Origin: Closterium sp. NIES-65
Lineage: Eukaryota; Streptophyta; Zygnematophyceae; Desmidiales; Closteriaceae
DNA length: 64,000 nucleotides
Assembly: GCA_948144175.1 (NCBI GenBank)
Contig: CANXME010002331.1
Span: forward strand, 62,001-126,000
Direction: 5' to 3'
Shown: positions 19,917 to 44,741 of the stretch, in pieces
Position numbering within the stretch: position 1 is the first letter of the stretch
How the letters are laid out: every line of letters begins with the position of its first letter
The notes under the pieces: model-generated
What the model was told of the DNA's origin: nothing
The model's input: the letters and a program-made list of their open reading frames with translations, nothing else
Database searches by the model: none
Program-made: the position numbers and the translations under genes

Positions 19917-21659
19917 GACGATTTGCTTGTACAATTCAAGGTTGGCGATGTTGCCTTCGCGTTCGCGGGGACGATCTGGAGAGATGATTTCTCACGAGGC
20001 CTAGCAACTTTGCGACCTACCGATTTCGCGACCTAGCAAGTATACGACTGGACGGCTATGCTTGCAGCACTTCACTGCTCGCTGACGTAGACAGAGCAGG
20101 CCAGAGAAGCGTAAGCAGAACTACCTAAGCTTCCAGCAACTCTAGCATAAATCACGTTGTCAATGCGACGGAAACTTGTGGAGCGGAGTTGCTAGCGCAG
20201 AGAGGTCAGACAATGTCTTGTACACTGACAAGACAGACTTGAAGGTTGGAAAATGCTTTGGTGATTGACTGAAGCTTGATGCACTGAAATGGTGGTAAAT
20301 AAGCACGCGGAATGTGCGTGCCCTCCTGGAAAGAGTAGAACAGCTAGAGATTGACAACGAGAACTAGCCACAGATTTAGGATAAAGCAGTCTTCCCCTGC
20401 GATAGTATTTCTCACGCTTTCTGTTGGCTGGATGATGAAAGCAATGCGTCAACTCAACCACACAAGCAGTGTCGATCAGAGAGTTCCGCTGAAGCTATGG
20501 CGGTTTTTCAGGCATCTTTGCAACTACCATACGGTAGCGTACCCGAACGTTCTGTATCTGACTTCACCGTTTCTCATCTTGCTAATAGTGGAACCCAGCA
20601 GCCTTGGGAATTGGTGCGTGTGTACCCCTGACCCCCTCTTCCGTGGGGGTGGTGGTGATGAGCAGAATCGTGTGGCTGGCTGGCGGCGGCAACACCGAGG
20701 CACCAACCAATCCCGAAGCGAACTTTGCGAGGAAAAATGAAGATTCTGCCTGAGGTGTCGTCGTCAGGTCACTCGTGCGATGCTTTGCGACTCGAGAGAT
20801 GCGACAGGCAGATGCGAAAGATGCGGAAGATGCGTGTTTTTGTGAAGGCTTGTTTTTACGTCGGTGTCGCTATTTGTCACAATAAACCACTACTCCGTTT
20901 GTCGCCATTTGTCACAATAAACCACTCCTCCGTTTGATTATTACCTTCGAGGTATCATGAAACATTACTTCGGATCCGTTGTGGAAACAGCATGTCAACG
21001 ATCGCAGTGAGATTCGCCAACTCCAAGCATCCTGCTGGCGGAATATTCCGTCTCAAGCATGTGGAGCATCGCCAACCAATCGTCTCGTCGTCGACTTGCT
21101 GAACACAGGGATCCAGGTAAGCAACGGGAGCAATTTATGATGCGCTGTCAAGGGGGTGGGAGTATTATGGCTGACTCGTCGCCAGCGACATTGTCGCTGC
21201 GTCGGATATTGGTCGACCCGAACCAGCGGTGGACATGTAGATGATGCCAAACCAGGCACTTCACAAGAACGGAATATTCTTGCTGAACAGGTAAGCGTGG
21301 GAAAAGTGCTACACGTTGATTCGATTTCACATACGTGGATAGAAAGGTCAACGCTATAACTTACTATTCAGGTGCAAATACCATGACATAAAAAAACATG
21401 ACCCCTTCTGAGCATGACCCCGATGCATTGCGCTTGGCTCACTGTCGCACAAGGTGCAAAGTGGGAGAATGGAGTAGGGTCTTGGCGTGTCTTACAGCCG
21501 GCAGCATGGCAGAGCCCTCCCAGCACATGGCTGTCTCGCTACGCGCCAAACACCCATCGTGCGGGACAGCCATCCCGGAGTGACACACGAGCCGTCCCTC
21601 ATACCCCATCTACCAGTGGCAGCACTCGGCCAACAATCCACTCGGCGGCTATAGGTCTT
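19917..21659. other. Intergenic, no gene recognised; one short tandem duplication
   Basis: Upstream of gene C's start codon and left of the LINE fragment. A ~32-bp unit containing ATTTGTCACAATAAACCACT is present twice at 20871-20935. Other open frames (20351-20740, 21398-21746) have no recognisable domain. Confidence 0.5.
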
Positions 21660-22345
21660 TACACAATGGAGCAAGGGAGGGGTAGCGGAGCGTGGACTAC
21701 CCTGGCTCACTGCATCCAACTTTGTAGGTCTATCGAAGCCGAATGATGACGTTCGTTCATTGGCTATCGGCGAGGTACTCCCCCACATACTATCTCGGGC
21801 TCTATGCATCGTGCTTCGCTCGAAAATGTTGTCGAACTTCTCTCCGTGTAATCAGCTTGAAGTCGGGTCCATGTCGGAAGCGGAAGTCCTGGCACACGCC
21901 TTTCGCTCCGCCAACTCTACTCACATGACGTTGTGCGCTCTTCGAATAGACGTAGTGAATGCTTTCAACTCTTTCAATCGACGAGAGATGTTTGAAGGCA
22001 TTTGCGAGCCACATTTTGCTGTATATATTCCATTGTTGCGCGTCTCCTATTGCACCACTAACGACCTCTATCTTCGCGCGGGCCCTTTCGTCGAGGCTTT
22101 GGCTTCCGAGCGGGGCTCGAGGCAAAGGGGCCCATTAGGGCCATTTCTAATAGCGTTCACACAACAGCTTGTAATGGAATCGACCAAGCAGAAATTTGCC
22201 AACCTCTTTTTCCCCGTCTACGCCGATGATACATACATTTTGGGTCCCGGAAGCGAGTGCTGGCAGCCGATGAGGTAATGCGGGAATGACTGGGCGGGCT
22301 TGGTCTGGAGGTGCAGCCGCATAAGTGCAAGATATGGGGGTGAGG
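21660..22345 (+). pseudogene. LINE-type (non-LTR) reverse transcriptase, central fragment
   Basis: The frame around 21690-22278 reads SNFVGLSKPNDDVRSLAIGE, then LRIDVVNAFNSFNR (first catalytic Asp), GSRQRGPLGPFLIAFTQQL (the QGDPLGP-like box with GD changed) and FFPVYADDTYILG (the FADD/YADD catalytic box near 22217). A stop follows at 22276, and a shifted frame continues LEVQPHKCKIWG to about 22340. These are the RT2-RT6 blocks of a LINE. No start, endonuclease or 3' tail is attached. The carboxy-terminal part appears 8.7 kb further on at 31081, across the methyltransferase retrotransposon. Confidence 0.8.
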
Positions 22346-23191
22346 GGTGGATCAAGAGGGAGAGGAGAGAAATGAGGCACTTGTCGCGGTTTTACGTAGC
22401 CAGGAGGGCCACATAGTAACCGAGACAGCGCCAAGAGTTTGGGAGCAAGGAGAGCGGCGGGACGTAGCAGAGGCAGAGTCAAGAAGGGCGGAGGGAAGAA
22501 GGAAGGGTGTACATAATTGTAAATAGCGCTCAAGAGTGTTTGCATAAGAATGGTGGGGGTACGAGTTGGGGTGGGTGTATGTTTCGTTTGTGTGGCAATC
22601 CTGTGCAGGGCGAAAGCTGTTGACGCGGATAAGTGCAGCACAGCCGATAGGTGGCAGAAGCTGCAGTTAACATGCAAGCCATGCTTGCAGCTGGCGGAGG
22701 GTTTGCGCTGGAGCCCATGCAGATACAGAGCGCCTGCGGTTTGTAAATACGGCTCGGCACCCCGAGCCTCGCCCATGTGATGTGTGCATGCTAGAAGCGC
22801 TAGGCTAGGGCGGTAGGGTTGTCTTGTACATAGCAGAGCTGAAACCCTAGTGTTGGCTGCTTCGTTGAATGTTTCCCATTTTGCTCAATGTAATCCTCTT
22901 AACCCAGTCGCAGGCAGTCATGAGCACGCTAGGGAACCAGCTTGTCAGCCAGTAGTGGGAAGGAGGTTTTCTGACATTCAATGAAGAAAATCTCCGGAGT
23001 GAAGCGCCTTAGACAGCGCATGCAGACACGGTCTGGGAAGCGTTACGAACGGCCGCCGGTGTTGGCGGCGATGGCGACGCCAGGATAGCGTGCAGGAGAA
23101 GTCACGGGGAGCGGTGGAGGGACGCAAGCGGGCGAGATGGAAGACGACGCCCGCAGAGAAGCCTACACGGCACCGCATCGGAGGCACAAGC
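22346..23191. other. Presumed 5' LTR/leader of the methyltransferase retrotransposon, boundaries not found
   Basis: LINE homology stops near 22345 and the gag frame opens near 23090, so this 0.85 kb should hold the element's 5' LTR and leader. I could not find a matching sequence downstream of the pol gene (29253-29569), nor a convincing primer-binding site. The LTRs are therefore unassigned; the 3' one may be truncated. Confidence 0.4.
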
Positions 23192-24859
23192 ATGGGTGAC
23201 CTGCCGAGCGAAGGCCGGGACGCGAGAGCGAGCTCGACGGGGAGACCGCTGGTAGAAGCCACCACGGGAGGGTCACAGTCGCGCGCGGGAGATACGCAAG
23301 GGGAGAGCTGTACCGACGGCGAGCTGCTCGGGCGCTTGAGGCGTCTCTCCTTATCAGAGCATCAAGTGACGGAAGTAACGTGCGCGGGCAACGTGAGGTA
23401 CGCCGCGCTACCCAAGATCGAGGTTCCCGAGCGCTTCGCGGGCACGCCAGGCGTGGGCAGCAGTCTAAAGAATTACATGATGCAGATCCGCAACGCGCAG
23501 TATGGCTGGATGAAGGACGGGCTGGAGCCAGAAGACTTCTTCCGGGGACTCTCGAACACGGTGACAGGAGAAGCGGAGACCGCGTATGGCATGGAGCTGG
23601 AACGCATGCTAAGTGAGCCGGCACAAGCCAGCGGAGTGACCTGGGACGTGGTGGCGCAGTTCTTCGACACGCTGAAGCGCCACTTCCCAGTGCAGACGCC
23701 GGAGCGTATGAGGGAGTTCGCATCGTTCAAAAGGAAGACGGGAGAGTCTTTGCTAGCTACGTACGGCAGACTGCGCGAGCTTGCGGCGGACATGGAATGC
23801 AGGGATGAGTGGAGGCTGGTCTCCAAATTTCTCAACTGCCTGGACGAGCGGGTGGCCGGGGATGTACGAGGAAGGGTGTTCGAGATGGGACCATCGGCGA
23901 CGCTGGAGTACGCGTACGAGCTGGCGAAGAAACACGAGTTGGGGCTCCGCCTCTACGAGATGGAGAGAGGCGGCATGCAGGCCGAAGGACGACGGGGGTC
24001 GGCCTGGGCGGCCGTGGCAGTCGGAGAAGCCTCCAGCAGGCGTGCCGCACGGGAGGCGGAGACGCGCAGGTGCCATCGGTGCGGGCAGGAGGGGCATCTG
24101 CAGCGGGATTGCAGCAGGCCGCCAAGGTGCGATCACTGCCAGAAGGAAGGGCACATGCGACGGGAATGTCCAGAAATCCCCACCTGTGAGAACTGCGGCA
24201 GGCGAGGGCATCGGACATCTGATTACTACAGCCGGAGACTAGGATCGGCGGGACCAAGAAACGAGAAGGACTTGGAGGCGCAGCTTCTGGTGCTGCAGGC
24301 ACGGATCAGGGAGCTGGAAGGTTCGGCTCGCAAGGAGTCCGCCATGCTGGCAAAAGAGGAGGAGGAGGGGAGTAGCGAAGCAGAGTTTGTGCTCGTGGTG
24401 CGGGCACCACGGCAGCGAGAGGAGATAGAGCTCAGAAGTGATCAAGGGGAAAGGAGAGAGCTGCCGGCCCCGAGGGTCAGGCGGTTTCGTGGGTACGCGG
24501 CAGAACCGGAGCAAGAAATGACATCGGAAAGACATCCCAAGGAGCGCATGGTGTGTCAGCCATCGGTGCTGACAATCGAAAAGGGGGCAATCACGGTAGG
24601 AGGGGTGACGGTGGCGCAAGCAATCATCGACACAGGGGCGCATCATATCCTCCTAGGGAAAGGGCTGGCTCAGAGGCTGGAGCTAGACCTGCCGAACCGG
24701 CTCATTACACGTGGAATCCTGGTGATGACTGCGGAGGGAGGTGAGCCGAAGTGGATGCACTGCACCCGCATGCCAGTGGAAGTGATCCTGCAGCCTGGCA
24801 CCAAGGACGAATGCCGAATCCGGATGCGGTGCGGCATATCGTCCGTCAGAGGATTTTGA
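23192..24859 (+). CDS. gag: Gag-protease ORF of the methyltransferase-bearing Ty3/gypsy retrotransposon
   Basis: The frame is open from about 23090, but the first ATG is at 23192, giving 555 residues. Order: a basic Ser/Gly-rich N-terminus; a retrotransposon Gag capsid domain (about 23400-23960, including FFDTLKRHFPVQTPERMREF and LATYGRLRELAADME); then three CCHC-type zinc knuckles at about 24070-24235 (CHRCGQEGHLQRDC, CDHCQKEGHMRREC, CENCGRRGHRTSDY). The third has Tyr in place of its last Cys. A coiled-coil segment follows (EAQLLVLQARIRELEG), then an aspartic protease with active site IIDTGAHHILLG near 24625. The frame stops at 24857-24859 inside the end of the protease domain; the missing residues continue in the +1 frame of the next ORF. 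Gag packages the RNA and the protease processes the polyprotein. Confidence 0.88.
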   Translation: MGDLPSEGRDARASSTGRPLVEATTGGSQSRAGDTQGESCTDGELLGRLRRLSLSEHQVTEVTCAGNVRYAALPKIEVPERFAGTPGVGSSLKNYMMQIRNAQYGWMKDGLEPEDFFRGLSNTVTGEAETAYGMELERMLSEPAQASGVTWDVVAQFFDTLKRHFPVQTPERMREFASFKRKTGESLLATYGRLRELAADMECRDEWRLVSKFLNCLDERVAGDVRGRVFEMGPSATLEYAYELAKKHELGLRLYEMERGGMQAEGRRGSAWAAVAVGEASSRRAAREAETRRCHRCGQEGHLQRDCSRPPRCDHCQKEGHMRRECPEIPTCENCGRRGHRTSDYYSRRLGSAGPRNEKDLEAQLLVLQARIRELEGSARKESAMLAKEEEEGSSEAEFVLVVRAPRQREEIELRSDQGERRELPAPRVRRFRGYAAEPEQEMTSERHPKERMVCQPSVLTIEKGAITVGGVTVAQAIIDTGAHHILLGKGLAQRLELDLPNRLITRGILVMTAEGGEPKWMHCTRMPVEVILQPGTKDECRIRMRCGISSVRGF

Positions 24860-24860
24860 T

Positions 24861-27800
24861 TTGCTGATAGGCATGGAGCTGTTGTATCGTGTGGGAGCCA
24901 CCATCTGCACCTGGCAGGAGAAAGTCCTCTACCGGACTCAGTACTGGAGGAATGATGGGCCCGTGGGCACACTGCCAGTACACTTCGTCAGACGTGAGCC
25001 GAGGGAAGCCTTTCGAGCGTGCATGGCGGAAGTGGAAGAGCAGATTGAAGATTGGTCCTGGAAGCAATACGTGCTGGAGCAAGAGACGTGCAAAGCGGAA
25101 GAAGAAAGGGCCGAGCGGCCCTTGGCGCTGCCCCCGAGGCTGACAGATCTGACGCGCCTGCAGGAACCGATCACCATCGTCGAGCTGTTCGGAGGGATCG
25201 GAACGGGGCTGGCTGCAGCACTAAAGGCAGGATGCAGAGTGAAGAAGTGGATACTAGTAGAAATAGATCCTGTGGTGCGTAGAATGGCCTTCAACCACGC
25301 AAGGAAGCTAAGAGGGATTTACCCGGCTCAGCTGATGTTGGATGTAGAGGCAGAGGCGGAAGAAGAATTGATCTACGATATTAGGGACGTGGCGGCAGAG
25401 GACGTGCGACGGTGGGGACGGGTGGATCTGCTGGTGGCGGGTTGGGAGTGCCAGGGAGTGTCGAGGGCCGGGAAGGGCAAGGGACTGGATGACCCCCGGT
25501 CCACGCTCTTCGCGGAGTTACTGCGTGTCATGAAGCTGGTATACCAGCAGCACGGGGAGTACTTGTACATCTTGGAAAACCCAAACTTCTCGACCGACTG
25601 CAGGGAGCCGGTGCGCCGAATGCTAGAAGTGGTGGCGGGAGCGCTGGGACCGGGAGTGGCATGGGATGCGGTACAGCAAGGGTCTTACGCGCACAGCGTC
25701 AGACGGTATTGCCAGAATGGGGTGTCAGAAGGGAGGCTCAGATGGGAGCTCATACAGACCGAGAGGCCCTCGCCACGCCCCGTGGAGGACATCCTGGAAG
25801 CGCATCGGGAGCCAGCGCCGGTGACTAAGCCCGATCACCCAAGTCAGTTCCAGTGCAACGAGCCCGGGTTGCCGAGAGAAGCCTGGCCCACTCTGATGGC
25901 GCACCACCAGGCCCATGGCTTCGTGTGGAGCGAGGGGCTGCCGGGCCCAGGCATGGTGTATGACCGGCTGAAGGACCGTTGGGAAGAGCCCTCGGCCACG
26001 GAGCGGGAGCTGGCGATGGGGTTCGTCCCTGACGCCACGGCAGCACCAGGAGTGGAAGAAGCCAAGCGGAGGGAAGCGCTCGGGCGAGCAATGGATGTGG
26101 AGGCTGTGCATTGGCTGATGCACGTGATACAGATGCACCTGGCCTCCAAGCAGCTGGAAATGGAAGTGGAAGTGGGAGGGCCAGGAGATGCGAGCGGAGA
26201 AGAGGTGCGCGCCAGCCAACAGAGGGCGGAACAGCGGCTGTTGGACATGCAGGTGGAAAGGCAGCAGCAGAGGGAGCGAGGTTGGGCTCTAATGGCGCTG
26301 GAAGTGTTGCCGGCAAGCAGAGAAGCAGCGGCAGCCGGCGAGCCGATATCACCAAACAGAGCTGGGGTGGCAGAGACGAGCCTGGGGCAGCAAGAGCCAG
26401 GGGCGGGGGCGGAACCAGAGGCCGAGACAGAGGGAGGGGGAATCATAGCGGTAGGCCGACCAGCAGCAGAGGAGGAGGAAGCATGGGAAGTAGGAGAAGG
26501 ATTGAAGGGAGACCTGCGGGAGCAGATGTGGAGCGTGCTGAGGAGGCATCGACAGGCATTTGCCTTCACACTGCCGGAGCTCGGCAAATACAACGGGGGA
26601 GAGATGGAGATTCGGCTAACGGAGGAGGTGCCGGTGTACCAGCGCAAACGTCGCATGAGCCCAGGAGATCTCGATCTGTGCAGAGAGAAGTGTCGGGAAT
26701 TGCTAGAGGCAGGGCTCATCAGGCCCTCTGAGTCGGAGTACGCGGCCGCCACCGTGGTGGCCGCAAGGAAAGAACTCACAGGAGAAGTGCTTTCACGACG
26801 CATGTGCGGCGACTACAGGGACCTCAACAAGCTGACGGTGGCGAATCGTTATCACATGCCAGCGCCAGAGGAGATATTCGACAAGTTGCAGGGGGCAGCG
26901 ATCTTCAGCACGCTAGATCTTCGCCAAGGCTTTAATCAGATACGAATCGTGGAGGCGGATGTGAGGAAGACAGCTTTTCATGGGCCGGACGGACTTTACG
27001 AGTGGCTGTTCATGCCTTTCGGACTAAAGAACGCGTCGGCAGTATTCCAGAAGGCAATGGATCGGGTGCTGCGCGCGCTGCAGCACTGCGCGGCCTGCTA
27101 CATAGACGACGTAGTTGTGTTCAGCGCAATGCCCGAGCAACACGTGAAGGATGTGCAGCAGGTCTTGGAAGCCATCAGGGGAGCCGGACTCACATGCCAC
27201 CCCAAGAAGTGCCGTTTCGGCACGAATACGGTGCGGTATCTGGGCTTTGAAGTGGGTGGAGGCCAGATGACCATTCAGCAAGCGAAGGTCGCAGTGCTGG
27301 ACAACCTGGCAGTCCCGAGTGGTCGCTCCGCGCTAAGGGCAATTCTAGGCTTCTTGAATTACTACCGTAAGTTCGTGCCGAACTTTAGTAGGCGGGCGGC
27401 TACTCTGAATAGGATGCTGCGGGAGGACGTGGCCTGGAAGTGGGGAGAGGCAGAGCAGGGGGCACTACGAGACCTGCTGGAAGCAGTGAAGTCGGGACCG
27501 GTGCTTCTGCTGCCAAAGCCAGAGGCCAGGTTCGTGCTGTACACCGACTGGAGCAGCGCAGGCATGGGGGCAGTGCTCAGCCAGCAGACAGAGCAGGGGG
27601 AGAGGGTGGTGGCCTTTGCGAGTCGCAGTTGCAACGCAGCAGAGGCGAACTACAGCTCCTACGAGGGAGAAGGGTTGGCGGCGGTTTGGGCGGTGACGCA
27701 TTTCCGAGTATACTTACAAGGGCGCGAGTTCACACTGGTGACAGACCACCAGCCGCTGCTGTGGCTAATGACTAATCATACGCTGACGGGCCGCAATGCG

Positions 27801-29252
27801 CGGTGGGCCATGCGGTTGCAGGAATTCGATTTCGTGGTGAAGCACAGGCCAGGCCGGGCGCTTCAGCACGTGGATGGGCTATCTCGTAACCCGCCAGCGG
27901 CAGAGCCAGTGGCCGGGCTCGTGGCTCTAGCAAGGGAGGCGGAAAAGCAGGGGGAGCAGCGTCAGGAGCAACGCGAAGCGGCCGACATCTGGCAGGACGA
28001 AGAGACTCTCAGGTGGCTGCGGGGAGAGACGGAGGCAGAGGAGCCTGCCTCAGAGAGAGCACGGGCAAGGGGACAACACTACAGGTGGTATGCGGGGCAA
28101 GTACAGCTGAGGACCAAAGAAGGGTGGAAGCTGGTGCCTGCGCCAGCAGAACGAGAAGGCATCATTGACAGGGTGTACCGACAGTTGGGGCACTTCGGGC
28201 ACGTCAGGACAACCCAGCTAGTCAACACGGGCTGGTGGTGGGCAGGCATGGCGCGACAGATTAAGGAGCAAGTGGCGCAATGTGAGGCTTGCGACCGCAA
28301 TAGGGCCCAGTTGGAGAAGAGCCAGCAAGAGCTGCAGTCGCTCCCCATCCGTGGGTTGGGCTACAGATGGTCCTTGGATTTGGCGGGGGAATTGCCTCTC
28401 AGCCGGCGAGGCAAGCGGTACATATTGGTCATGATCGAGCATGTCAGCAAGTGGGTGGAGGTGCGCGCGCTTAGCAGCAAGAGCGCGGCACTAGTCACGG
28501 AGGCCTTCACGGAGCAAGTGCTCACTAGGATGGGGGCATGTGGTGAAGTGCTCACCGATCAGGGCACAGAGTTTCGGGGGGAGTTTGACAAGGCGTTGGC
28601 AGTTATCGGGATTACGCACAGGAGGACCTCCCGGTACCATCCACAAGCAGACGGCCTCACAGAGCGGATGGTGCAAACACTCAAGCGAGGGCTAAGGGCA
28701 TATGGAGAGGCTCACAAGCGCAGCTGGGATGAGGATCTGCACTGGGTCGCTGCGGGGTATCGGTTCAGCAAGCAGGCGGCGCAGCGAGATGTGTCCCCAT
28801 ACTATCTGCTATATGACAGAGAGCCAATCCTGCCGGTAGGGGCGCCCAAAGTGTTGACTGATGTGGTGACAGCGGGAACCCCAGAGTTGTGGGCGGCGCT
28901 GGCCAAGGCCAAGGGGGACTACCTACGAGCGCTCCTGCCTTCAGCGTTAGAGAATCTCCATGTGGCTCAGCTGCGAGACGCGCGTCGGTACCAGCAGAGG
29001 CTCGGGGGGCAGAGGCCGACATGTGGGGGGCGGCTGCAGGAAGGGCAGGACGTGTATCGCAGGACTGCGCGGCAGCACACATTGGACCGTGGCCTCAGCG
29101 AGGAACGCTGGAGAGTGGTGGAGGTCCGAGAGTCTGGAGTGGTGGTACTGGAGAATCAGCAGGGGAGGAGGGTCCAGAACCACACCACGAATACAGCAAG
29201 GGCACGGTCTAGGAGTTTGAATGGTCTAGATCAGAGCCAGCAGGAGCCCTAG
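24861..29252 (+). CDS. pol: Pol of a Ty3/gypsy retrotransposon: protease end, C5-cytosine methyltransferase, RT, RNase H, integrase
   Basis: One uninterrupted frame of 1463 codons with no credible start of its own. It begins with the last strand of the protease (LLIGMELLYRVGA), so translation most likely enters by +1 frameshift. Residues ~104-425 form a DNA cytosine methyltransferase (separate entry). RT follows at about 26600-27270 with CGDYRDLNKLTV and YIDD at 27099-27110, then RNase H with LYTDWSSAGMGAVL (Asp at 27546) and TDHQPLLWL. Next come the integrase HHCC finger (HFGHVRTTQ to CEACDRN, 28180-28300) and core with Asp at 28377, Asp at 28557 and Glu at 28662. The C-terminal tail has no chromodomain. 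All catalytic residues of RT, RNase H and integrase are present and no stop interrupts the frame, so the element looks young or under selection. It is distinct from the chromovirus at 44371. Confidence 0.93.
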   Translation: MLIGMELLYRVGATICTWQEKVLYRTQYWRNDGPVGTLPVHFVRREPREAFRACMAEVEEQIEDWSWKQYVLEQETCKAEEERAERPLALPPRLTDLTRLQEPITIVELFGGIGTGLAAALKAGCRVKKWILVEIDPVVRRMAFNHARKLRGIYPAQLMLDVEAEAEEELIYDIRDVAAEDVRRWGRVDLLVAGWECQGVSRAGKGKGLDDPRSTLFAELLRVMKLVYQQHGEYLYILENPNFSTDCREPVRRMLEVVAGALGPGVAWDAVQQGSYAHSVRRYCQNGVSEGRLRWELIQTERPSPRPVEDILEAHREPAPVTKPDHPSQFQCNEPGLPREAWPTLMAHHQAHGFVWSEGLPGPGMVYDRLKDRWEEPSATERELAMGFVPDATAAPGVEEAKRREALGRAMDVEAVHWLMHVIQMHLASKQLEMEVEVGGPGDASGEEVRASQQRAEQRLLDMQVERQQQRERGWALMALEVLPASREAAAAGEPISPNRAGVAETSLGQQEPGAGAEPEAETEGGGIIAVGRPAAEEEEAWEVGEGLKGDLREQMWSVLRRHRQAFAFTLPELGKYNGGEMEIRLTEEVPVYQRKRRMSPGDLDLCREKCRELLEAGLIRPSESEYAAATVVAARKELTGEVLSRRMCGDYRDLNKLTVANRYHMPAPEEIFDKLQGAAIFSTLDLRQGFNQIRIVEADVRKTAFHGPDGLYEWLFMPFGLKNASAVFQKAMDRVLRALQHCAACYIDDVVVFSAMPEQHVKDVQQVLEAIRGAGLTCHPKKCRFGTNTVRYLGFEVGGGQMTIQQAKVAVLDNLAVPSGRSALRAILGFLNYYRKFVPNFSRRAATLNRMLREDVAWKWGEAEQGALRDLLEAVKSGPVLLLPKPEARFVLYTDWSSAGMGAVLSQQTEQGERVVAFASRSCNAAEANYSSYEGEGLAAVWAVTHFRVYLQGREFTLVTDHQPLLWLMTNHTLTGRNARWAMRLQEFDFVVKHRPGRALQHVDGLSRNPPAAEPVAGLVALAREAEKQGEQRQEQREAADIWQDEETLRWLRGETEAEEPASERARARGQHYRWYAGQVQLRTKEGWKLVPAPAEREGIIDRVYRQLGHFGHVRTTQLVNTGWWWAGMARQIKEQVAQCEACDRNRAQLEKSQQELQSLPIRGLGYRWSLDLAGELPLSRRGKRYILVMIEHVSKWVEVRALSSKSAALVTEAFTEQVLTRMGACGEVLTDQGTEFRGEFDKALAVIGITHRRTSRYHPQADGLTERMVQTLKRGLRAYGEAHKRSWDEDLHWVAAGYRFSKQAAQRDVSPYYLLYDREPILPVGAPKVLTDVVTAGTPELWAALAKAKGDYLRALLPSALENLHVAQLRDARRYQQRLGGQRPTCGGRLQEGQDVYRRTARQHTLDRGLSEERWRVVEVRESGVVVLENQQGRRVQNHTTNTARARSRSLNGLDQSQQEP
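25170..26135 (+). other. C5-cytosine DNA methyltransferase domain embedded in gypsy pol (DNMT3-like motif order)
   Basis: Numbering from the codon at 24861. Motif I ELFGGIGTG (108-116) binds S-adenosylmethionine, and motif II is VEIDP (133-137). Motif IV is WECQG (195-199), with the catalytic Cys197 at 25449-25451. Motif VI is LENP (238-241) with the conserved Glu239. Motif VIII-like SYAHSVRRYCQNG (275-287) recalls the DNMT3/DRM pattern, as does the C-terminal block EEPSATERELAMGFVPDA followed by RREALGRAMDVEAVHWLM. The target-recognition segment is short. In known enzymes motif IV is PCQ/PCN and motif VI ENV; here Pro is Glu and Val is Pro. The domain lies in frame between protease and RT, so it would be made as part of the polyprotein. 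Function is inferred: methylation of the element or host DNA. Confidence 0.88.
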
Positions 29253-29569
29253 TCTGTTCCAGAGGGGGCAAGTGAGGTATCACGATGGAGCGCTGTCACA
29301 CGGCACACGGTATACAGCAGATAGGGCGTTGGTAGTGCCCCAGTAGCGATAGCAGGAGAGATTGGGAGGAGAGGAGTCCAAGAGGAGAGAAAGGGGGGGG
29401 GAAGGAAGAACCAGTGGACTACAGGCATTGTCGGCAGGAGTTAGGAGAAAGGGGCCACACAGAGTATTTCCGACACACTTCCGCTTAGCATGCAGCAAAC
29501 CTGGACAGGGTTCATCGTAGTAGGTGTCCCAATTGGGGAGGAGGATTGGGAGGTGGCTCGCCTGCGAGA
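29253..29569. other. 3' untranslated/LTR remnant of the methyltransferase element
   Basis: Just after the pol stop, AGAGGGGGCAAG resembles a polypurine tract, and the sequence after it could begin an LTR at TGAGG (about 29273). No second copy of it is found upstream of gag. The target copy CGAGA of the next LTR element occupies 29565-29569. Confidence 0.4.
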
Positions 29570-30226
29570 TGTCAGAATATTATGCTCTAGCCTGTAGTGG
29601 GGTGATCCATAGTGAGTACAACCCTTCTAGGGTTTGCTATTTGTATCCCCATTCTTGCTAGTTCAACCTTCTTCTCTCTTCTAAATTTTCACATGCTATC
29701 AGAGCAGGTCGATCCCCTTGGATCGATCCTGTGGGTGGGCTCACCACCTCGTTGCTTCCGCTGCAACTACTACTGCTACTCTCTGTGCCGCACGCCCCGT
29801 GGCGTGCGGCAGTTTTTTTCTTCCCGCCGTACGCCCCGAGGCGCGCGGCAATCATCTGCCCGCCGTGCGCCCCGAGGCGTGCGGCGGTTCTCTACCCGCC
29901 GTGCTCCCCGAGGCGCGCGGCGAGTTTCTGCCCCGTCACGCCGCGCGTCGCTCTCGGGAGGCGCTGCGACGGGCGACGGGGACCCGCGCGTCGCCCCCCC
30001 CCCCCCCCCGTCGCCGCTCCTATCGGCCCCGTCGCCGCCGCCAGCGGCCCCGTCGCCGCCGCCAGCGGCCCCGTCGTCGCCGCCAGCGGCCCCGTCGCCG
30101 CCCTTGCACGGCCCCGGCGGCCCCCGAGGGTCGCCTCGACGGACGACGGGAGGGGCGACCTGGGGGAGGGGGGCGGGCACCGCCCCTTCTGCCGCCTGTT
30201 TTGGCGCCCTGGGAGGCCGCGCATCG

Positions 30227-30263
<37 letters not shown>

Positions 30264-31060
30264 TCCCTCCCGTAACCTCCCTACCCACCATCCCGCCCTG
30301 CCCTGTGTTAGGGTTTGGGGGTGGCGAGTAGGGGGTGGCGGGTGTGTAGTCTCTCCTGATCCTCCTCCTCCTCTGTCTCCCATTGCTGCAGCTGCCGCTG
30401 AGGGGGGTGGGTGTGTGGGAGTCGACGGAGTGGTGCTAGGGGGTGGGGTGTGAGTGACCCTAGGGGTGCAGTAGGGGGTGTGTGTCAGGGGGGGTGAGAC
30501 TGTTTGGGAAGCTGAACGGGAGTTGCCGTCGTGTCACCAGCAGCACCTGTAGTCCGGGAAGTTGCTCCGGTAGTCCAGTCGTAGCCACTTGTGCCAGTCG
30601 CCCGTGGGTCCGTTGCTCGTCTGCCGCTACTTTAGCCGCGGGGCCAGTTACTCCAGTAGTCCGGAGAGTTGCTCCAATAGCCACTGTGCCAGTGTGCCTC
30701 CTGTTGCCCGAGTGTCTGCAGCTTCAGCCGTCGCCTCCTATCTCCTCTCCTCTCACTCTCGCCTCCTCCTCCTCACTTGCCCTCTGCGATAGCCTCTAGC
30801 TTTGCTCATAATTGTTAACTTTAAACTATTGCTTCTTGAACTTGTGCTCAGAATGTGTGGTGACATTGTGATCCACCCTGAGCTTGTACTGCTTTGCTTG
30901 CTCTGCTGATTACACCCCACTTTGGCTATGGGGGTGTGTCAGAATATTATGCTCTAGCCTGTAGTGGGGTGCTCCATAGCGAGTACAACCCTTCTAGGGT
31001 TTGCTATTTGTATCCCCATTCTTGCTAGTTCAACCTTCTTCTCTCTTCTAAATTTTCACA
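29570..31060 (+). mobile_element. Complete non-autonomous LTR retrotransposon (TRIM-like), 1491 bp
   Basis: LTRs 29570-29693 and 30937-31060 (124 bp each) differ at very few positions (GTGATCCATAGTG versus GTGCTCCATAGCG). Target-site copies CGAGA lie at 29565-29569 and 31061-31065. The primer-binding site TGCTATCAGAGC (29694-29705) matches the initiator-Met site TGGTATCAGAGC at 11 of 12 bases. The interior has about six 25-30 bp units with CCCGAGGCGCGCGGC (29800-29935), a GCCAGCGGCCCCGTCGCC repeat, a C homopolymer near 30230-30262, and GGGTTTGGGGGTGG. No protein domain is present; long open frames on both strands come from the GC-rich repeats. It must be mobilised in trans, probably by a Copia-type element given this primer site. 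Confidence 0.9.
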
Positions 31061-34680: not shown

Positions 34681-36143
34681 TGTGAAGATAAGCAGTAGAA
34701 GTAGGAGCCATAGCTAGGAAAGCCCTAGCTAGGCAAGAAACAGTTTAGGCAAAGAGGGTGTTCACTAGCAGGAATGAGGATACAAATAGCAAACCCTAGA
34801 AGGGTTGTACTCGCTATAGAGCACCCTACTACAGGCTAGAGCATAACATTCTGACACACCCCTATAGCCAAAGTGGGGTGTAATCAGCACAATGAGCAAG
34901 CATGTATAGAGTAGGAGTTTACACAGATAAGCAAAGCTAGAGCTAATCACAGCGGACAAGTGAGGAGGAGGAGGAGCTGTGGAGGGAGAGAAGATGGGAG
35001 GCAACGACTGAGGCTGCAGAGGCACGGGCACAGGAGCGGCTGACTCAGAGGCTACCGAAGCAAGGGCGATGGACTACTGGAGTAACTGGCTCGGCGGCTA
35101 TAGAAGAGCGGCAGGAGCAACGGACCCACTGGCGACTGGTGCAGCAGACTCACTGGCTACCGAAGCAAGGGCGACGGACTACAGGCGCTGCAGACGACAC
35201 GACAGGTACCTCCACACAACCTCCTCCAACTGCCCCACACCCTCGACACACGCCCACTGCTCAAACCCTAGCTCCACTCCCACGCACCCCCCTTAAACCC
35301 TAAACCCCAGTCTCCCACTTATCCACCCCCCTTAGCGACAGCTGCAGCAGTGGGAGACGAAGGAGGAAGAGGAGCAGGAGACGGTGCACAGAAGCTGCAC
35401 CCCCATACCCCCCACCCCCAAACCCTAAGTCAGGAGAACGGGCAGCAGCAGGGGTGGGGCACCGTCAGAAGCACAGGGGACAGCGGGCAGCTCAGAAGCA
35501 GTGGAAATAGGGCGCCCACGGGCCTGGCGCAGCCCGTACGAACCGCACGCGGGCGGCCCGAGGCGCGCCCTGGCCTGGCGCAGTCCGGACGGGCCGCGCG
35601 CGGGCCTGGCGCTGCCCGTATGGGCCGCGCGCGGCCCTGGCGCAGCCCGTACGGGCCGCGCGCAGGCTGTACGGGCCGCGCGCAGGCCCTACGCAGGTCG
35701 CGCGGGCCACGACGGGCGACGGGGGGCGACGCGCGGGTCCCCGTCGCCCGTCACAGCGCCTCCCGGGGGTGACGCGCGGAGTGACGGGCCAGAAAGCCGC
35801 CGCGCGCCTCGGGGCGCACGGCGGGCAGAAAACCGCCGCGCGCTCCGAGTGCGCGGCGGGATGAAAAATCCGTCGCACGCCACGAGGCGTGCAACACACA
35901 GAGTAGCAGTAGCAGTGGAAGCAGTGAGGTGGGGCCCACAGGCCAGGAGCATATCGCTTTAATACCATGTGAAGATAAGCAGTAGAAGTAGGAGCCATAG
36001 CTAGGAAAGCCCTAGCTAGGCAAGAAACAGTTTAGGCAAAGAGGGTGTTCGCTAGCAGGAATGAGGATACAAATAGCAAACCCTAGAAGGGTTGTACTAG
36101 CTATAGAGCACCCCACTACAGGCTAGAGCATAACACTCTGACA
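34681..36143 (-). mobile_element. Complete non-autonomous LTR retrotransposon (TRIM-like), 1463 bp
   Basis: LTRs 34681-34856 and 35968-36143 (176 bp each), target copies CGTAT at 34676-34680 and 36144-36148. On the minus strand the primer site after the 5' LTR is TGGTATTAAAGC (35956-35967), 10 of 12 bases matching the initiator-Met site. The interior carries GC-rich repeats (GGGCCGCGCGC units at 35520-35700, GCGCCTCGGGGCGCACGGC at about 35800) and the TTTAGGG-like and GCAGCTGTCGCT-like blocks shared with the other small LTR elements. There is no coding domain. It is inserted in the Tigger transposase remnant. Confidence 0.9.
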
Positions 36144-36558
36144 CGTATGTTAAGGGACGCGTGGCGGGGAGGAGGATTTCCAAATAACACCTGGCCGTAG
36201 GCCTTCCTTGTTCCTCTCGGAGCTTCGGAAGAGAACGTATGTTAAGGGATGTGTGGCGGGGAGGAAGATTTCCAAAGAACACCGACGGCGCCCACTCTAT
36301 CCGCCCGCTCGTGATCTCCAAGGCGTCCCCGTGCATTTTTCTACCCAATTACAACCCCAAACTATTATGCTACTGGCCCTCTATCAAGAAGGGCCGGAGG
36401 ACCGCTTCGATAAGTGTGCGAATATTTTACAATTTAGAGTGATCATATTTCCCATGGCTACATTCAAGTTCTATTCTAGTCTAAGTAACTCGCATTAGTC
36501 TAGCTAGTCTTCACATATCGTTTTCTGTTCGTTTTCTTTCCACCCCTGCCCCACTCAT

Positions 36559-37844
36559 TGTCAGAATGTTGTATTTGTCTAGCCTGCAGTGGGGTACTCT
36601 ATAGCGAGTATAGCCCAATCTAGGGTTTCCTATATGTACTCAACTGCTTGCTAGTGCAACCTCTCTTTCTACTTCTAAACTTTTCTTCGTGATTTTGACA
36701 TGCTATCAGAGCGTGTCCTTCCTTGGCCTGTGGGCCCACCAACCTGCTTCCGCTGCTACTTGATCTGTCGCACGCCCCATGGCGTGCGACCTATTTTTCA
36801 ACCTATTACTCTCTGGCGCGCGGCCCCTTTCCTTCCTGGCGCGCTGCCCCCGCTATTTCGTCACGGCACCCTAGGGAGCCGCGCGCGCCCCCTGCCCGTC
36901 CGTTGCGATGCCCTGAGGTGTCGCGCGCGGCCCCTGCCGTCCTGTCGCGGCGCCCGGGCAAGGAGCGCGTGGCCCCTGCCGTCACGTCGCGGCGCTCTGA
37001 GGAGCCGCGCGCGACCCTCCGCTACCTCGTCGTGGCGCCCAGGGGAGCCGCGCGCGGCCCCTCGCTGCCCCGTGGTGGCGCCCTGGGGGCCGCGCGCCGT
37101 TCCCCTAGTCGTCCCCCGCACTCCTACCCCCTGCCACCCGTTTTAGGGTTTGGGGGTGGGGAGTGTGGGGATGGCGGTTGTGGGGGTGCCGGTTGTGTGC
37201 GCCGTCCCCTACTCCTCCTCCTCCATCTCCCGCTGCTGCAGCTGCCGCTCAGGGGGGTGGGTGTGTGGGAGCTGAAGGAGTGGTGCTAGGGGGGTGTCGT
37301 GGGAGTGGAGCTAGGGGTGCAGCAGGGGGTGTGTGATAGGGGCGTGGGACAGCTGGGGGAGGTTGAGTGGAGGCAGCCGTCGTGTCGTCAGCAGCGCCAG
37401 TAGTCCGGAGGCTACAATCTCCGGTAGTCGCCAGTCGCCTGTGGGTCAGTTGCTCCAGTCAAGAGGCTACAATCTCCGCGGAGCCAGTTACTCCTATAGT
37501 CCGGGCCCTTGCTTCGGTAGCCACTGAGCCAGCAGCTCCTGTGTGTCTGCAGCTTCAGCAGCCGCCTCCCATCTTCTCGCCCCCACAGTCTCTCCTCCTC
37601 CTCACTTGCCCTTTGTGATAGCCTCTAGCTTTGCTTGCAATTGTGAACCTGCTCTATGACTGCGTGCTCTGCTGATTACACCCCAATTTGGCTATGGGGG
37701 TGGGTCAGAATGTTGTATTTGTCTAGCCTACAGTGGGGTACTCTATAGCGAGTACAGCCCAATCTAGGGTTTCCTATATGTACTCAACTGCTTGCTAGTG
37801 CAACCTCTCTTTCTGCTTCTAAACTTTTCTTCGTGATTTTGACA
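36559..37844 (+). mobile_element. Complete non-autonomous LTR retrotransposon (TRIM-like), 1286 bp
   Basis: LTRs 36559-36700 and 37703-37844 (142 bp). The 3' LTR begins GG instead of TG, a point change. Target copies CTCAT at 36554-36558 and 37845-37849. Primer site TGCTATCAGAGC at 36701-36712. Interior: roughly eight ~36-bp units built on CGTCGCGGCGCCC and GCCGCGCGCGGCCCC (36840-37110), then TTTTAGGGTTTGGGGGTGG and CTGCAGCTGCCGCTCAGG. No protein domain. It splits the Tigger DDE domain: catalytic-core homology resumes directly at 37850. Confidence 0.9.
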
Positions 37845-38885
37845 CTCATCTCATCACCCACTTCATCGAGCAGCTCAACGCTGCAATGTTCACGGAGTGG
37901 AGGAACATCGTCATTTTGCTGGACAACGCCGACAACACAAGCTGCTTACCGAGACGGCTGTTGCGGAGGACTTGTCCGATATATGGACGAAGTCACTGAG
38001 CAACATTCACTTAGTTTACCTCCCCCCCAACACAACCTGCTTCACCCAGCCCCTGGTCTAGGAGGTCATCACAATGGTGAAAGGGCATTATGCCTGATTT
38101 ACCTCCCCCCAACACTGCTTGCTTCACTCACTGGCTGTATGCATTCGCGGCGCAGTGGGGATGCGATCGGGGCACTCGTGGCTCTCGCGGGGTACATGCC
38201 AAATCTGCATGACGTCATCGAATGGCTAAGCGACGCGTGGACGAACAATCCCCGCGTACGATTCAGCGCTGCTGGTGGCACACGAGGCATCTGCTGAGTG
38301 CACGAGAGATGGGGCCATGGCACATGGCCGAGCCTGATGTTGACGACGATTCTGAGATGCCCGATTTGGAGGACGAGATGGCAATGGTCGGCGCGCCCAT
38401 CGCGGGCCTGCAGCTCGGCCCAAGCGCGATGCCCACTCTGAGGTGGTTGAGTTTGGCACAAACCAACCCACTTGCGCTGAACCAGGAGAGGACCTGCTCA
38501 TAGAGGAGCCGTCATTCCCCACCCCACCATCGACGTGGGATGCCCCCCCGCCGCCCACGTCCGGAAACAACGACAACGAAGATGCGGCGTGCGAAGCTCG
38601 CTGCACTTCCAGTGCTGCCTACGAGATGCTTATCGAGCATGCGCACTTGCTTAACCTTGCTCCGTATGACCTTCGCTCGCTGTTCAACATCCGCAATCTC
38701 ATCATCGTCGAGCGTCTGGAGCGCGCAAGCCCGCGCCTAGATCTGAACCTCCCTGCATCCCCCCCCACACTTTGCCCCAGCGAACACCTCCTCCCTTGGT
38801 GGATACTGGCAGGTCGCCGCCGCCAAAAGCTGCTTGATGCATGTGTTGGCGCGGGCATGGATGATTACCTGGAGAGCGCCGACTA

Positions 38886-39249
38886 GATGCGCAATTTTTG
38901 AACTGCCATTCACGGCCGTGCACCAGACAATGTGCACGATGGCATTCCGTGTGTGTTTCCAACTGCGAACGTCGGAGGATGTGATAGGCATGCAGTTGTT
39001 TGATTTTTCTCGTAGCAATGTTTGTCATGTTATTGTTGTAATTGTGATTTTGATGTTACAACTGTTGTGTGGGAATCATATGAGTAGGACGACTAGGCTT
39101 GTATCCTGGAAACACAAAGAACACTGCAGTCCACCTAAACACTACAAACGGAAAACGCGTCACAGCCGTGTTTGAAAGAGTGTGAAAATGATGCTCGCTT
39201 GAGTTCGTAGGTGTCTAAAAAGAATATGGGCTTGTAGAGGAAATAATGT
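38886..39249. other. No gene recognised
   Basis: Follows the end of the Tigger coding remnant and may hold its right end. Open frames here are short, and no terminal inverted repeat matching the left side could be found. Confidence 0.4.
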
Positions 39250-39426
39250 GTACACTACATCTGTGTCATCGGGTCTCGCGGCTGTGATCGGCCAGTCATT
39301 GAGAAGTGACCATCCATATGCATATCGCCGCAAGGGCCGATAGAGCCACAACTTTTTGTTCAGGTGCAGGTAACCAAGATCGCCATTTCGAAAAGATGCT
39401 TCGGTACAGAAGGAAACCAAGGGCAT
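39250..39426 (-). pseudogene. PC-esterase gene fragment (antisense paralogue of gene E last exon)
   Basis: On the minus strand LRRYAYGWSLLNDWPITAAR followed by PDDTDVV parallels LERYGLSFFNDWLIAAPRSD in exon 4 of gene E at 44130-44190, and LHLNKKLW parallels ISHLNKVA. Only this part of the exon is present; there is no catalytic GDS block or His. It lies head-to-head with gene E exon 1. Confidence 0.6.
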
Positions 39427-39726
39427 TTGGTGGGATGCATTCCGGTTTCGTTGTAATTCCCGTTGCTCATGAGTTTCTCCTTTTTCTTCGCTCTACTAGC
39501 ATCTCGCATCCTTTTAGAGACTGCCGAGCCCGTCGCCGCCGCAATGGTCATAGGCGGGGACAGTAGAATTTCCCTCAACTTGTTCCCATCGAATCGAATC
39601 ATTTGCCAACTACATTAATCTTCACTGTCCTGCTCCAGACGTCGCCATACTTGCGCGTCCTCAGAGAGGTCTCTAGTCTTAGTGGATTAAGGGTGTCTAC
39701 ATTCATAGTATCTACGAAGCCGCTCC
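39427..39726. other. Likely promoter region of gene E
   Basis: 300 bp between the antisense fragment and the first ATG of gene E. No coding motif, no clear TATA box. Confidence 0.35.
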
Positions 39727-42700: not shown

Positions 42701-43421
42701 CACCTGACCCGCTCTCCGCTTTCATCTATTTTTTTCAGGCGCTTACTAATCAAACCAAATCCCATTTATCCTTCCATCTTCTCTCTCCCCCTTCTCCCGA
42801 CTCCCCGCCCAATCAGCGTCCTGGTCCAATCAGAGTGCGACACGTTGGACTTTGCTCATGATTACTTGGAGCGAGTCAATAGCACGGGATCACATGTCAT
42901 GGCTCAGTGGGTCCTCACCGTCCTCCTACCCACCGAACCAGCCACTGAACCACCCACCGAACCAGCCACTGAACCACCCACCGAACCAGCCACTTCTGCC
43001 AAGTTCGAACCCAGCAACGAATCTTCTCAGGACATAACGGACGGTCCAGATTCGCCCTGCGACCATTCCATCCACGACCGGTGGCTCTTCTCCCCCCAAA
43101 AGCAAGCCTACACGTGGCAGCTCTACCCATGCGCGCACCCCCTCCCTCCCACCTCCCAATGGGTCTCCGCCCTCCAGTCCCGGGGCATTTCCGAAATCAA
43201 CTTTGTGGGGGACTCTCACGTGCGATTCCTCTTCCACCATCTCTACTTCCTCCTCACTGGCAAGGCCAATGCATCTACCATGGTATTTCACGGGGACATC
43301 CGATTGGTCGTGCCGCCCCGAAGCCCAGGGCTGCAGCCTTTGAAGCTTAACTTCTATTGGATTGGAGGGATTTACGTCGACGGGCCGTTTGGATGCAGGT
43401 GCAGTATGGGAGCTTAGATCG

Positions 43422-43493
<72 letters not shown>

Positions 43494-43631
43494 TCTCTCC
43501 CTCTGTTTCTATCCCCTCAGTTAGTGTCTTTAGCTCTTGGTTGAGGTCTCCATTTGGCATCCATTCGGTTGAGCTAATCCTTGTACGTATATACCGCACT
43601 TGGCTCGACTTTGGGTAACTGCTGGCTCTTA

Positions 43632-44344: not shown

Positions 44345-44741
44345 ATCGTGTTGTAGACATAGTGCAACTCTGTTACGAGTGCAATTGAGTGAACGAACGA
44401 GAATTGCACTATCGAAGCAAGAGTACAATGAGCGAAGGCATGAGCGAAGAATATATAGCGAAACTACAGTGGTAACGGTAATGAACTGTGGTTGTTGCGC
44501 GACGAGCCTGGGACTGAGGTTGGGAAATATGTCGAAGCGTAGGCCCGGAGCGCGGGTTACCCGCCGAGCCGTGAGGTCGGGGTGCGATGTGCGAAAATGG
44601 CGGGATGAGTGTCGATGCGATGGTCGCGAGTGGTAACGGTGCTGACTGAGGTGCTACAGTGGTGTACGCGATGAGCAGGGATGCGAAGTAAGGAAAAAGG
44701 GAATTTTCCTTACACTACCCCCCCCCTTAAGGAGGTCCCGT

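What the first reader, a model, noticed from the sequence alone, without database searches (positions are those of the whole stretch)
24861..29252. A Ty3/gypsy retrotransposon that encodes its own DNA cytosine methyltransferase
Seen: one uninterrupted frame holds protease end, a full set of C5-methyltransferase motifs (ELFGGIGTG, VEIDP, a catalytic Cys in WECQG, LENP, a DNMT3-like C-terminal block), then RT (YIDD), RNase H and integrase with all catalytic residues. Known: capture of cytosine methyltransferases by retrotransposons has, as I recall, been reported in the charophyte Klebsormidium and the dinoflagellate Symbiodinium. Inferred: the element could methylate its own or host DNA, either to hide new copies from nucleases or to moderate host damage. 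The position between protease and RT means it would travel inside the particle, next to nascent cDNA.
Basis: partly seen in the sequence, partly recalled or inferred. Interest (0 to 1): 0.95.

Follow-up and report, generated by a model that had tools for sequence, protein, structure and literature searches.

The report
Algal retrotransposon carrying a DNA methyltransferase
A green-alga jumping gene carries its own DNA-methylating enzyme, as one earlier reported from another alga does, and its repeat layout and insertion scars suggest that it inserts itself in an unusual way.

Summary
Observation confirmed. Window 22382-29475 (+) is a Ty3/gypsy-type retrotransposon copy, flanked by a 4-bp duplication, whose Pol holds a DNMT3-like C5-methyltransferase between protease and RT. 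Its own 874-Mb genome, which looks like Closterium, has at least 326 DNMT places. DNMT dN/dS is 0.09 against 0.08 for RT. The kind is already known (KnitGypsy-Dnmt3 of Klebsormidium, 2018). New here, as far as my searches show: (1) relatives in Closterium, Chlorophyceae, Cymbomonas and unnamed records, in three layouts, with one DNMT clade among those sampled; (2) DIRS-like A-coding-B-A-B repeats with TG...CA ends and target duplications of at least 4 bp in 10 of 10 resolved loci, a near-constant GACA-GC-TGTC B|A joint and a variable A|B joint that looks like end-joining; (3) mostly Glu instead of Pro before the catalytic Cys. The window copy looks dead: its frame breaks between protease and DNMT, and two near-invariant DNMT residues are changed. 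Best reading: the DNMT methylates the element's own cDNA before or during insertion. Function is untested, and in the window's subfamily DNMT carries more stops than RT.

The parts
22378..22381 (.). left copy of the 4-bp target-site duplication CACT
   Evidence: identical CACT follows the element at 29476-29479
22382..22973 (+). A repeat (A1), starts TGTCGCGG; this copy lacks the second A and second B seen in many relatives
   Evidence: aligned to L009, L010, L014, L025; ends called
22382..29475 (+). whole element copy, form A-coding-B
   Evidence: end-to-end 92.9% DNA match to one relative (L009), TG...CA ends, TSD
23192..24859 (+). gag and protease frame from first Met 23192 (three CCHC knuckles 24071-24226; protease DTGA at 24623-24646)
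   Evidence: PF00098 E 2.1e-11; PF13650 E 1.2e-4, just under Pfam's cut-off; coordinates
24786..24859 (+). overlap of the gag-protease frame with the pol frame: the reading frame of this copy is broken here; sibling L009 reads through in one frame
25146..26150 (+). DNMT3-like C5-methyltransferase domain (residues 121-455)
   Evidence: PF00145; DNMT3 enzymes best among solved structures; motifs
25692..25718 (+). motif VIII with two private changes (Ser304, Cys309) at near-invariant positions
26766..27275 (+). reverse transcriptase core (YIDD at 27099)
   Evidence: PF00078 E 8.6e-32
27441..27830 (+). RNase H
   Evidence: PF17917 E 5.9e-35
28131..28685 (+). integrase (H2C2 zinc site and D,D,E core)
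   Evidence: PF17921 E 3.8e-11, PF00665 E 2.4e-11
29261..29270 (+). polypurine tract AGAGGGGGCA directly before B
   Evidence: a GGGGGCA-type tract lies at or near the B1 start in 12 of 13 relatives printed; coordinate
29271..29475 (+). B repeat (B1), ends TTTCCGACA
   Evidence: second copy downstream of A2 in L010, L014, L025
29476..29479 (.). right copy of the target-site duplication CACT

Best explanation
The window holds a decayed copy of a multi-copy, recently active Ty3/gypsy-type retrotransposon of a Closterium-like green alga, of the KnitGypsy-Dnmt3 kind. Shown: the DNMT3-like domain is part of Pol between protease and RT, is under purifying selection in sibling copies, and recurs in relatives across green algae; the integrated elements have split direct repeats, TG...CA ends and target duplications of at least 4 bp. 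Inferred: reverse transcription makes a linear cDNA with B-A repeats at both ends (polypurine tract before B, presumed primer site after A). Its ends are joined by end-joining, either in a circle or after capture at the target, and the DDE integrase uses the internal B|A palindrome as its substrate. Inferred and untested: the DNMT, carried in the particle as part of Gag-Pol, methylates this cDNA, so that the unintegrated or newly inserted DNA is treated as silent or self DNA.
For: Domain and order. Copies: 326 distinct DNMT places from three capped searches. Catalytic Cys and motif VI Glu in 127 of 127 aligned domains and 21 of 21 own copies. dN/dS within the window family (7 copies; 6 for gag and RT): DNMT 0.092, RT 0.080, the others 0.054-0.070; between families, median of unsaturated pairs, DNMT 0.18 (11 of 28), RT 0.106 (8 of 28). 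A-B-A-B with TSD of at least 4 bp in 10 of 10 loci whose two outer ends were resolved; A-coding-B with 4-bp TSD in 4 of 6. A2|B2 joints differ between close siblings; B1|A2 is GACA..TGTC in 14 of 15 loci. GACAGCTGTC also in the noncoding part of the distant relative L048. Recent: 12 A1/A2 pairs are 96.6-99.7% identical. CpG transitions in these pairs at 18 of 588 positions against 31 of 6356 elsewhere: inserted copies behave as methylated DNA, by whatever enzyme. In L048 a TAG followed by CAATCA separates gag-protease-DNMT from RT; with readthrough, DNMT would be made at Gag levels, which fits a role in the particle.
Against: No activity or methylation data. In 29 matched copies of the window's subfamily DNMT carries 21 stops in 14 copies and RT 3 in 3, each of these also with DNMT stops (3.5-fold per residue, P 0.019 ignoring shared descent). 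Two alike copies with a DNMT stop and a clean RT (C1674, C1782) may mean that the domain can be dispensed with, or are one duplicated segment. Glu replaces the usual Pro before the catalytic Cys. CpG observed/expected of 15 elements (0.71-0.83) is near the window background (0.77): no strong depletion. KnitGypsy-Dnmt3 showed no activity in yeast, called inconclusive by its authors. The A2-B2 pair sat on the 3' side in all 10 complete A-B-A-B loci; a simple two-LTR circle cut at random would put it on either side. L009 ends in A2 with no B2 and no duplication, and L021 and L027 have no duplication.
Confidence: 0.45

Rival explanations
1. The domain has lost methyltransferase activity and is kept for SAM or DNA binding or as a structural spacer of Pol.
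For: Glu before the catalytic Cys in 81 of 127 domains and 21 of 21 own copies; stops accumulate in DNMT in the window's subfamily; the related Klebsormidium domain showed no activity in yeast.
Against: Catalytic Cys and motif VI Glu kept in 127 of 127, with other motif positions near-invariant; 35 of 127 domains keep Pro.
Confidence: 0.2
2. The DNMT acts on host chromatin or on other element copies, for example damping transposition or competing with host silencing, rather than on nascent cDNA.
For: CpG transitions are raised 6-fold in inserted copies; Symbiodinium hosts with such elements have unusual methylomes (PMC5890265).
Against: Sits in Pol next to RT; host DNMTs alone could explain the methylated state. 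A separate nuclear form was not searched for. No direct test.
Confidence: 0.2
3. The DNMT methylates RNA (genomic RNA or primer tRNA), as DNMT2 does.
For: Present during reverse transcription if packaged; no ordinary tRNA primer site was recognised by eye after A.
Against: Profile similarity is to DNMT3 (E 4.6e-21), DNMT2 only about 2e-3; DNMT3A falls on the retro-DNMT side of the tree.
Confidence: 0.08
4. The methyltransferase is a chance insertion or assembly join in one copy.
For: None found.
Against: 326 distinct DNMT places in the genome, 20 of 20 fetched loci with the same order, and homologous proteins in independent records.
Confidence: 0.01

Closest known systems
KnitGypsy-Dnmt3, Klebsormidium nitens (de Mendoza et al. 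2018, PMC5890265)
   Same: DNMT3-related domain in the Pol frame of a Gypsy element, DIRS-like repeat arrangement (Fig. 4 legend), Ka/Ks below 0.2
   Different: The parts I saw report no TSDs, junction scars or relatives in other green algae, and call the acquisition independent; here the sampled green-alga retro-DNMTs form one clade.
SymbioDIRS-Dnmt3 (Symbiodinium)
   Same: DNMT3 domain in Pol; A-coding-B-A-B repeats
   Different: DIRS element with tyrosine recombinase; here a DDE integrase and target duplications
DIRS/Ngaro/PAT elements
   Same: split direct repeats
   Different: tyrosine recombinase and no target duplication (recalled); here DDE integrase and a duplication of at least 4 bp
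Ordinary gypsy element in the same window (44371-50236)
   Same: gypsy pol
   Different: conventional 644-bp terminal repeats, 99.5% alike, no flank duplication seen; no DNMT hit listed there (capped lists)
DNMT3A/3B and bacterial DNMT3-like methyltransferases
   Same: nearest solved structures and same side of the tree
   Different: Glu for Pro in motif IV in most members; fused in Pol

Membership tests
Ty3/gypsy retrotransposon | Pol order RT - RNase H - zinc/DDE integrase, with CCHC gag and aspartic protease | tested here: met
   protease PF13650 just under cut-off; no RT tree with reference gypsy clades was made, only one chromovirus outgroup
Ty3/gypsy retrotransposon | long terminal repeats directly at both ends | tested here: not met
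   A-coding-B-A-B (10) or A-coding-B (4) with TSD in 14 of 21 copies; hence filed as a variant by pol, not as a canonical LTR element
Ty3/gypsy retrotransposon | 4-6 bp target-site duplication | tested here: met
   10 of 10 resolved A-B-A-B loci; 4 of 6 A-coding-B
Ty3/gypsy retrotransposon | tRNA primer-binding site after the 5' repeat | tested here: inconclusive
   sequence after A starts ACA in the loci read, no TGG; by eye
KnitGypsy-Dnmt3 | DNMT domain inside Pol of a gypsy element | tested here: met
KnitGypsy-Dnmt3 | DIRS-like repeat arrangement | tested here: met
   defining text from the Fig. 4 legend
KnitGypsy-Dnmt3 | purifying selection on DNMT, Ka/Ks below 0.2 | tested here: met
   0.092 within the family, 0.18 between families
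KnitGypsy-Dnmt3 | sequence kinship with the K. nitens elements | not tested
   no protein named K. nitens was listed
DIRS-type elements | split direct repeats | tested here: met
DIRS-type elements | tyrosine recombinase instead of DDE integrase | tested here: not met
   PF00665 and PF17921 match in the pol ORF, no recombinase family listed for the gag and pol ORFs
DNMT3 | nearest by profile and tree | tested here: met
   DNMT3A E 4.6e-21, best of 56 PDB sequences; on one side of a branch with DNMT3A pieces and bacterial P0187/P0188 (100/99), order among these unresolved
DNMT3 | Pro-Cys in motif IV | tested here: not met
   Glu-Cys in the window and in 21 of 21 own copies; Pro in 35 of 127 domains
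DNMT3 | de novo DNA methylation activity | not testable with these tools
   needs an assay

The most novel reading that the evidence does not exclude
These elements are gypsy-type retrotransposons whose DDE integrase does not use the ends of the linear cDNA but an internal palindromic B|A joint, so that end-joined (circular) cDNA is a normal step of the cycle. The captured DNMT3-like enzyme would serve this step, marking or shielding the free cDNA. Split repeats together with a methyltransferase also occur in SymbioDIRS, which would make this a repeated pairing of the two traits.
Probability: 0.3. Interest if true: 0.85.

Novelty: new variant of a known kind. Interest (0 to 1): 0.6.

Why it matters
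Retrotransposons that carry a DNA methyltransferase invert the usual picture in which methylation silences them. This family gives many young copies, several layouts and one DNMT clade among the sampled green algae, so what the enzyme does for the element can be tested by comparing copies with intact and broken DNMT. The scars at the A|B joint may record cDNA handling in the sequence of each insertion, making an unusual integration route testable from genomes alone.

Tried and rejected
Conventional terminal repeats round the window element: none found. Pseudogene or assembly join: rejected by copy number. Host = Closterium sp. Naga37s-1: P0147 from that strain matches this genome at 86-87% over most of its length, shorter pieces up to 94%, so probably not that strain; species unnamed. 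Two-LTR circle cut at random: disfavoured, 10 of 10 complete loci have A2-B2 on the 3' side. Strong CpG depletion as in SymbioLINE: not seen. Layout with DNMT between RNase H and integrase in this genome: not among 43 matches of a capped list (22 of 22,912 candidates scored), which does not show absence. DNMT-less close relatives: unresolved; 99 of 150 nearest RT places have a listed DNMT upstream, the lists are capped. Viral collection: 19 loci, best 43% in short segments. Genome collection: 3 loci, of which only L048 was close. Structure prediction: switched off. My first PHD label was drawn from residues just before the finger; recounted. Paper searches for DNMT-gypsy elements beyond Klebsormidium and for gypsy split repeats listed no such paper that I recognised; only open-licence PMC is held, and I opened seven papers, most of them as passages only.

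Full report
WHAT IS THERE. The pol frame 24786-29252 (+) has 1488 codons without a stop and matches PF00145, RVT_1, RT_RNaseH, Integrase_H2C2 and rve. The frame before it (23003-24859) has three CCHC knuckles and a retroviral-type protease; the protease match PF13650 (23.2 bits) is just under Pfam's cut-off of 24.3. The sibling L009 has gag, protease, DNMT, RT, RNase H and integrase matches in one frame within an open frame of 1953 aa, and other own-genome copies have open frames of up to 2492 aa without a stop; the window copy changes frame between protease and DNMT, so I read it as broken. Its DNMT also has Ser304 and Cys309, where the 20 other own-genome copies have Arg in 20 and Trp in 19. 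The catalytic Cys and the motif VI Glu are present. I therefore read the window copy as dead and the family as recently active.

ENDS. The element is 22382-29475, flanked by CACT on both sides. It starts TGTC and ends GACA.

FAMILY IN THE GENOME. The genome is 874,075,685 bp in 2400 contigs. Searches with PF00145 (123 scored of 901 candidates), the window's DNMT (119 of 1463) and a second subfamily's DNMT (125 of 1475) give 326 distinct places, a lower bound for DNMT places; not every one was shown to lie in an element. I fetched 20 loci out of the PF00145 list, mostly ones with long open frames, so intact copies are over-represented. In 20 of 20, protease, DNMT, RT, RNase H and integrase come in that order; a gag match precedes them in 20, only as a 29-aa piece in L010 and a partial one in L015. 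Seven copies, window included, form the window's own family (about 92-99% DNA identity in the pairs compared); the other 14 are 48-54% identical to the window in DNMT protein.

REPEAT STRUCTURE. Ten of 21 copies (20 loci plus window) read A1 - coding - B1 - A2 - B2 with both outer ends resolved (self-match lengths A 431-675 bp, B 85-283 bp), and 10 of these 10 have identical flanks of at least 4 bp; L011's match is six bases of a simple repeat. Six are A-coding-B without second repeats: four have 4-bp flanks (window, L013, L016, L018), two do not (L021, L027). Five were not scorable: L009 ends at A2 without B2, L010 lacks A1, L012 and L028 run out of the piece, L014 has masked bases at its left end. 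The A-coding-B form may be a separate insertion product or the result of recombination between B1 and B2; I cannot tell which. Hits at regular spacing suggest tandem units: C995, three at 7064 (part read as L028) and C382, two at 7088 (not fetched).

JUNCTIONS. The B1|A2 joint matches GACA-(0-3 bases)-TGTC in 14 of 15 loci that have it, with GC between wherever printed; L011 has GATAGCTGTC. A GGGGGCA-type purine tract lies at or within a few bases of the B1 start in 12 of 13 loci printed, L023 differing. The A2|B2 joint varies even between close siblings: L011 has one extra base, L017 a short deletion at a microhomology, L019 an exact join; in the window family L010 and L025 are exact or nearly so and L014 lacks 16 bases of A at a shared AGTG; L026 has eight extra bases (my reading). 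This looks like end-joining of the two cDNA ends made anew at each insertion. I infer that reverse transcription makes B-A...B-A linear DNA and that integrase uses the inner B|A palindrome. I could not recognise the primer site. Why A2-B2 sits on the 3' side in all ten complete loci is unexplained. GACAGCTGTC also occurs once in the noncoding part of L048, a distant relative in a 9285-bp contig filed under a cyanobacterial MAG, whose 127-bp end overlap suggests a circular assembly, possibly an artefact of repeats. Control in the window: an ordinary gypsy element at 44371-50236 has conventional 644-bp repeats; this is one element only.

SELECTION. NG86 dN/dS pooled over the pairs of seven window-family copies (six for gag and RT): gag 0.062, protease 0.070, DNMT 0.092, RT 0.080, RNase H 0.057, integrase 0.054. 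Between eight family representatives (28 pairs; 21 for gag), medians over unsaturated pairs only: gag 0.262 (14 pairs), protease 0.27 (18), DNMT 0.18 (11), RT 0.106 (8), RNase H 0.126 (12), integrase 0.134 (3). Pooling counts shared branches more than once, and stop codons were skipped. Against a strict need for the domain: of the 34 rows at 78% identity or more I left out three partial ones (C1672 with 2 stops, C2356 with 0, C222 with 1); two more (C1806 with 0, C365 with 1) had no listed RT. In the remaining 29 matched copies DNMT has 21 stops in 14 copies and RT 3 in 3; no copy has a stop in RT alone. The DNMT is thus conserved over the long run but broken in many copies.

METHYLATION TRACES. 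In 12 A1/A2 pairs, transitions occur at 18 of 588 CpG positions and at 31 of 6356 others, about six-fold. This fits methylated CpGs in inserted copies but does not say by which enzyme; the one ordinary gypsy element differs at only three places between its repeats, so it is no control. CpG observed/expected is 0.71-0.83 in 15 elements, 0.77 in the rest of the window and 1.17 in the ordinary gypsy element.

RELATIVES. One search (capped at 8000 candidates) gave 26 proteins: 20 named Closterium sp. (NIES-53, -54, -68) and six without an organism name. One search gave 130 (120 listed), most without an organism name; named ones are Haematococcus lacustris (P0068, P0142), Scenedesmus sp. PABB004 (P0099) and a record whose code I read as Chromochloris zofingiensis (P0087). 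Over 146 proteins (window included), 107 have DNMT after RT/RNase H, 16 before RT (15 Closterium records and the window), 11 before integrase with RT outside the fragment, 12 undetermined. A PHD finger is matched in 101 of 146 and in none of the 21 Closterium-group proteins (the PHD label covered residues just before the finger). L048 combines DNMT before RT with a C-terminal PHD and has TAG followed by CAATCA between DNMT and RT; this resembles the tobacco-mosaic-type readthrough context (recalled), which would make DNMT at Gag levels. The five relatives P0010, P0012, P0013, P0016 and P0017 end where the first L048 frame stops. Cymbomonas P0171 has an RNase H-like tail before its DNMT (my reading). 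One search (capped at 8000 candidates) gave 44 proteins, the best one from Closterium sp. Naga37s-1.

PHYLOGENY. In RT+RNase H (32 rows) and DNMT (31 rows) trees the Closterium group is one clade (99/99 and 100/100), the RT-RNase H-DNMT-integrase group another (94/93 and 100/99), with L048 outside both. With phage and bacterial enzymes and DNMT3A pieces (29 rows, chosen by me), the 15 retro-DNMTs form one clade (100/99), on one side of a branch with DNMT3A and two bacterial enzymes (100/99), branching order unresolved; a third bacterial enzyme, P0189, falls with the phage ones. Fewest assumptions: one capture, then relocation of the domain. Horizontal transfer is not excluded, and Klebsormidium was not sampled. 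Profile searches agree: DNMT3A E 4.6e-21, 4onj (recalled as a plant DRM) 7e-12, M.HhaI 1e-9, DRM2 4e-9, DNMT2 about 2e-3. The phage family phrog_116 also matches all 8 members of the alignment (best E 4.2e-25), so a prokaryotic source is not excluded. The residue before the catalytic Cys is E in 81, P in 35, S in 6, A in 3, D in 2 of 127 domains.

HOST. No name is given. Closest named proteins are Closterium; P0147 (Naga37s-1) reaches 86-87% in this genome over most of its length, with shorter pieces up to 94%. PMC10407611 (passages only) gives 438-975 Mb for six Closterium assemblies, compatible with 874 Mb. Closterium or a near relative is inferred.

LITERATURE. PMC5890265: parts 1-3 of 7 and passages. 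PMC12344493: section 5 and passages; it describes DNMT3 members within retrotransposons of 'LTR Copia and DIRS' families in streptophytes and dinoflagellates. PMC11244446, PMC12477816, PMC10407611, PMC13419823, PMC11096116: passages only. Absence claims rest, of which I otherwise saw listings.

VERDICT. Identity of the thing: about 0.97. The kind has been known since 2018; this is a new variant by distribution, layouts and end structure. Function of the DNMT: inferred, about 0.45 for self-methylation of cDNA.

Noticed in passing
window 29570-31060 (+): Short element with 124-bp terminal repeats (98.4% alike), a TGCTATCAGAGC motif after the first repeat that resembles a plant tRNA-iMet primer site (recalled), and CGAGA on both flanks; similar pieces recur near 34.7-37.8 kb and 40.2-41.6 kb. 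Looks like a non-autonomous conventional LTR element.
   Followed up: partly
window 44371-50236 (-): Ordinary gypsy element with 644-bp terminal repeats 99.5% alike; a fragment of a similar pol lies at 2958-3797.
   Followed up: partly
window 21655-22278 (+): ORF resembling a reverse transcriptase (VYADDTYILG) just upstream of the element, by eye a LINE-type remnant.
   Followed up: no
L048 3483-3500: In-frame TAG followed by CAATCA between gag-protease-DNMT and RT: a possible readthrough site that would make DNMT at Gag levels.
   Followed up: partly
L048: Eukaryote-type retroelement contig filed in a cyanobacterial MAG (CADCWO010000201.1): likely contamination.
   Followed up: partly
G000 C995 near 460522-474898 and C382 near 35480-43581: DNMT hits at about element-length spacing (7064 and 7088), probably tandem arrays of whole units.
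   Followed up: partly
window 42665-43417 (+): ORF with a GDSHVR motif like plant TBL/PC-esterase proteins (recalled), fitting a streptophyte host (by eye).
   Followed up: no
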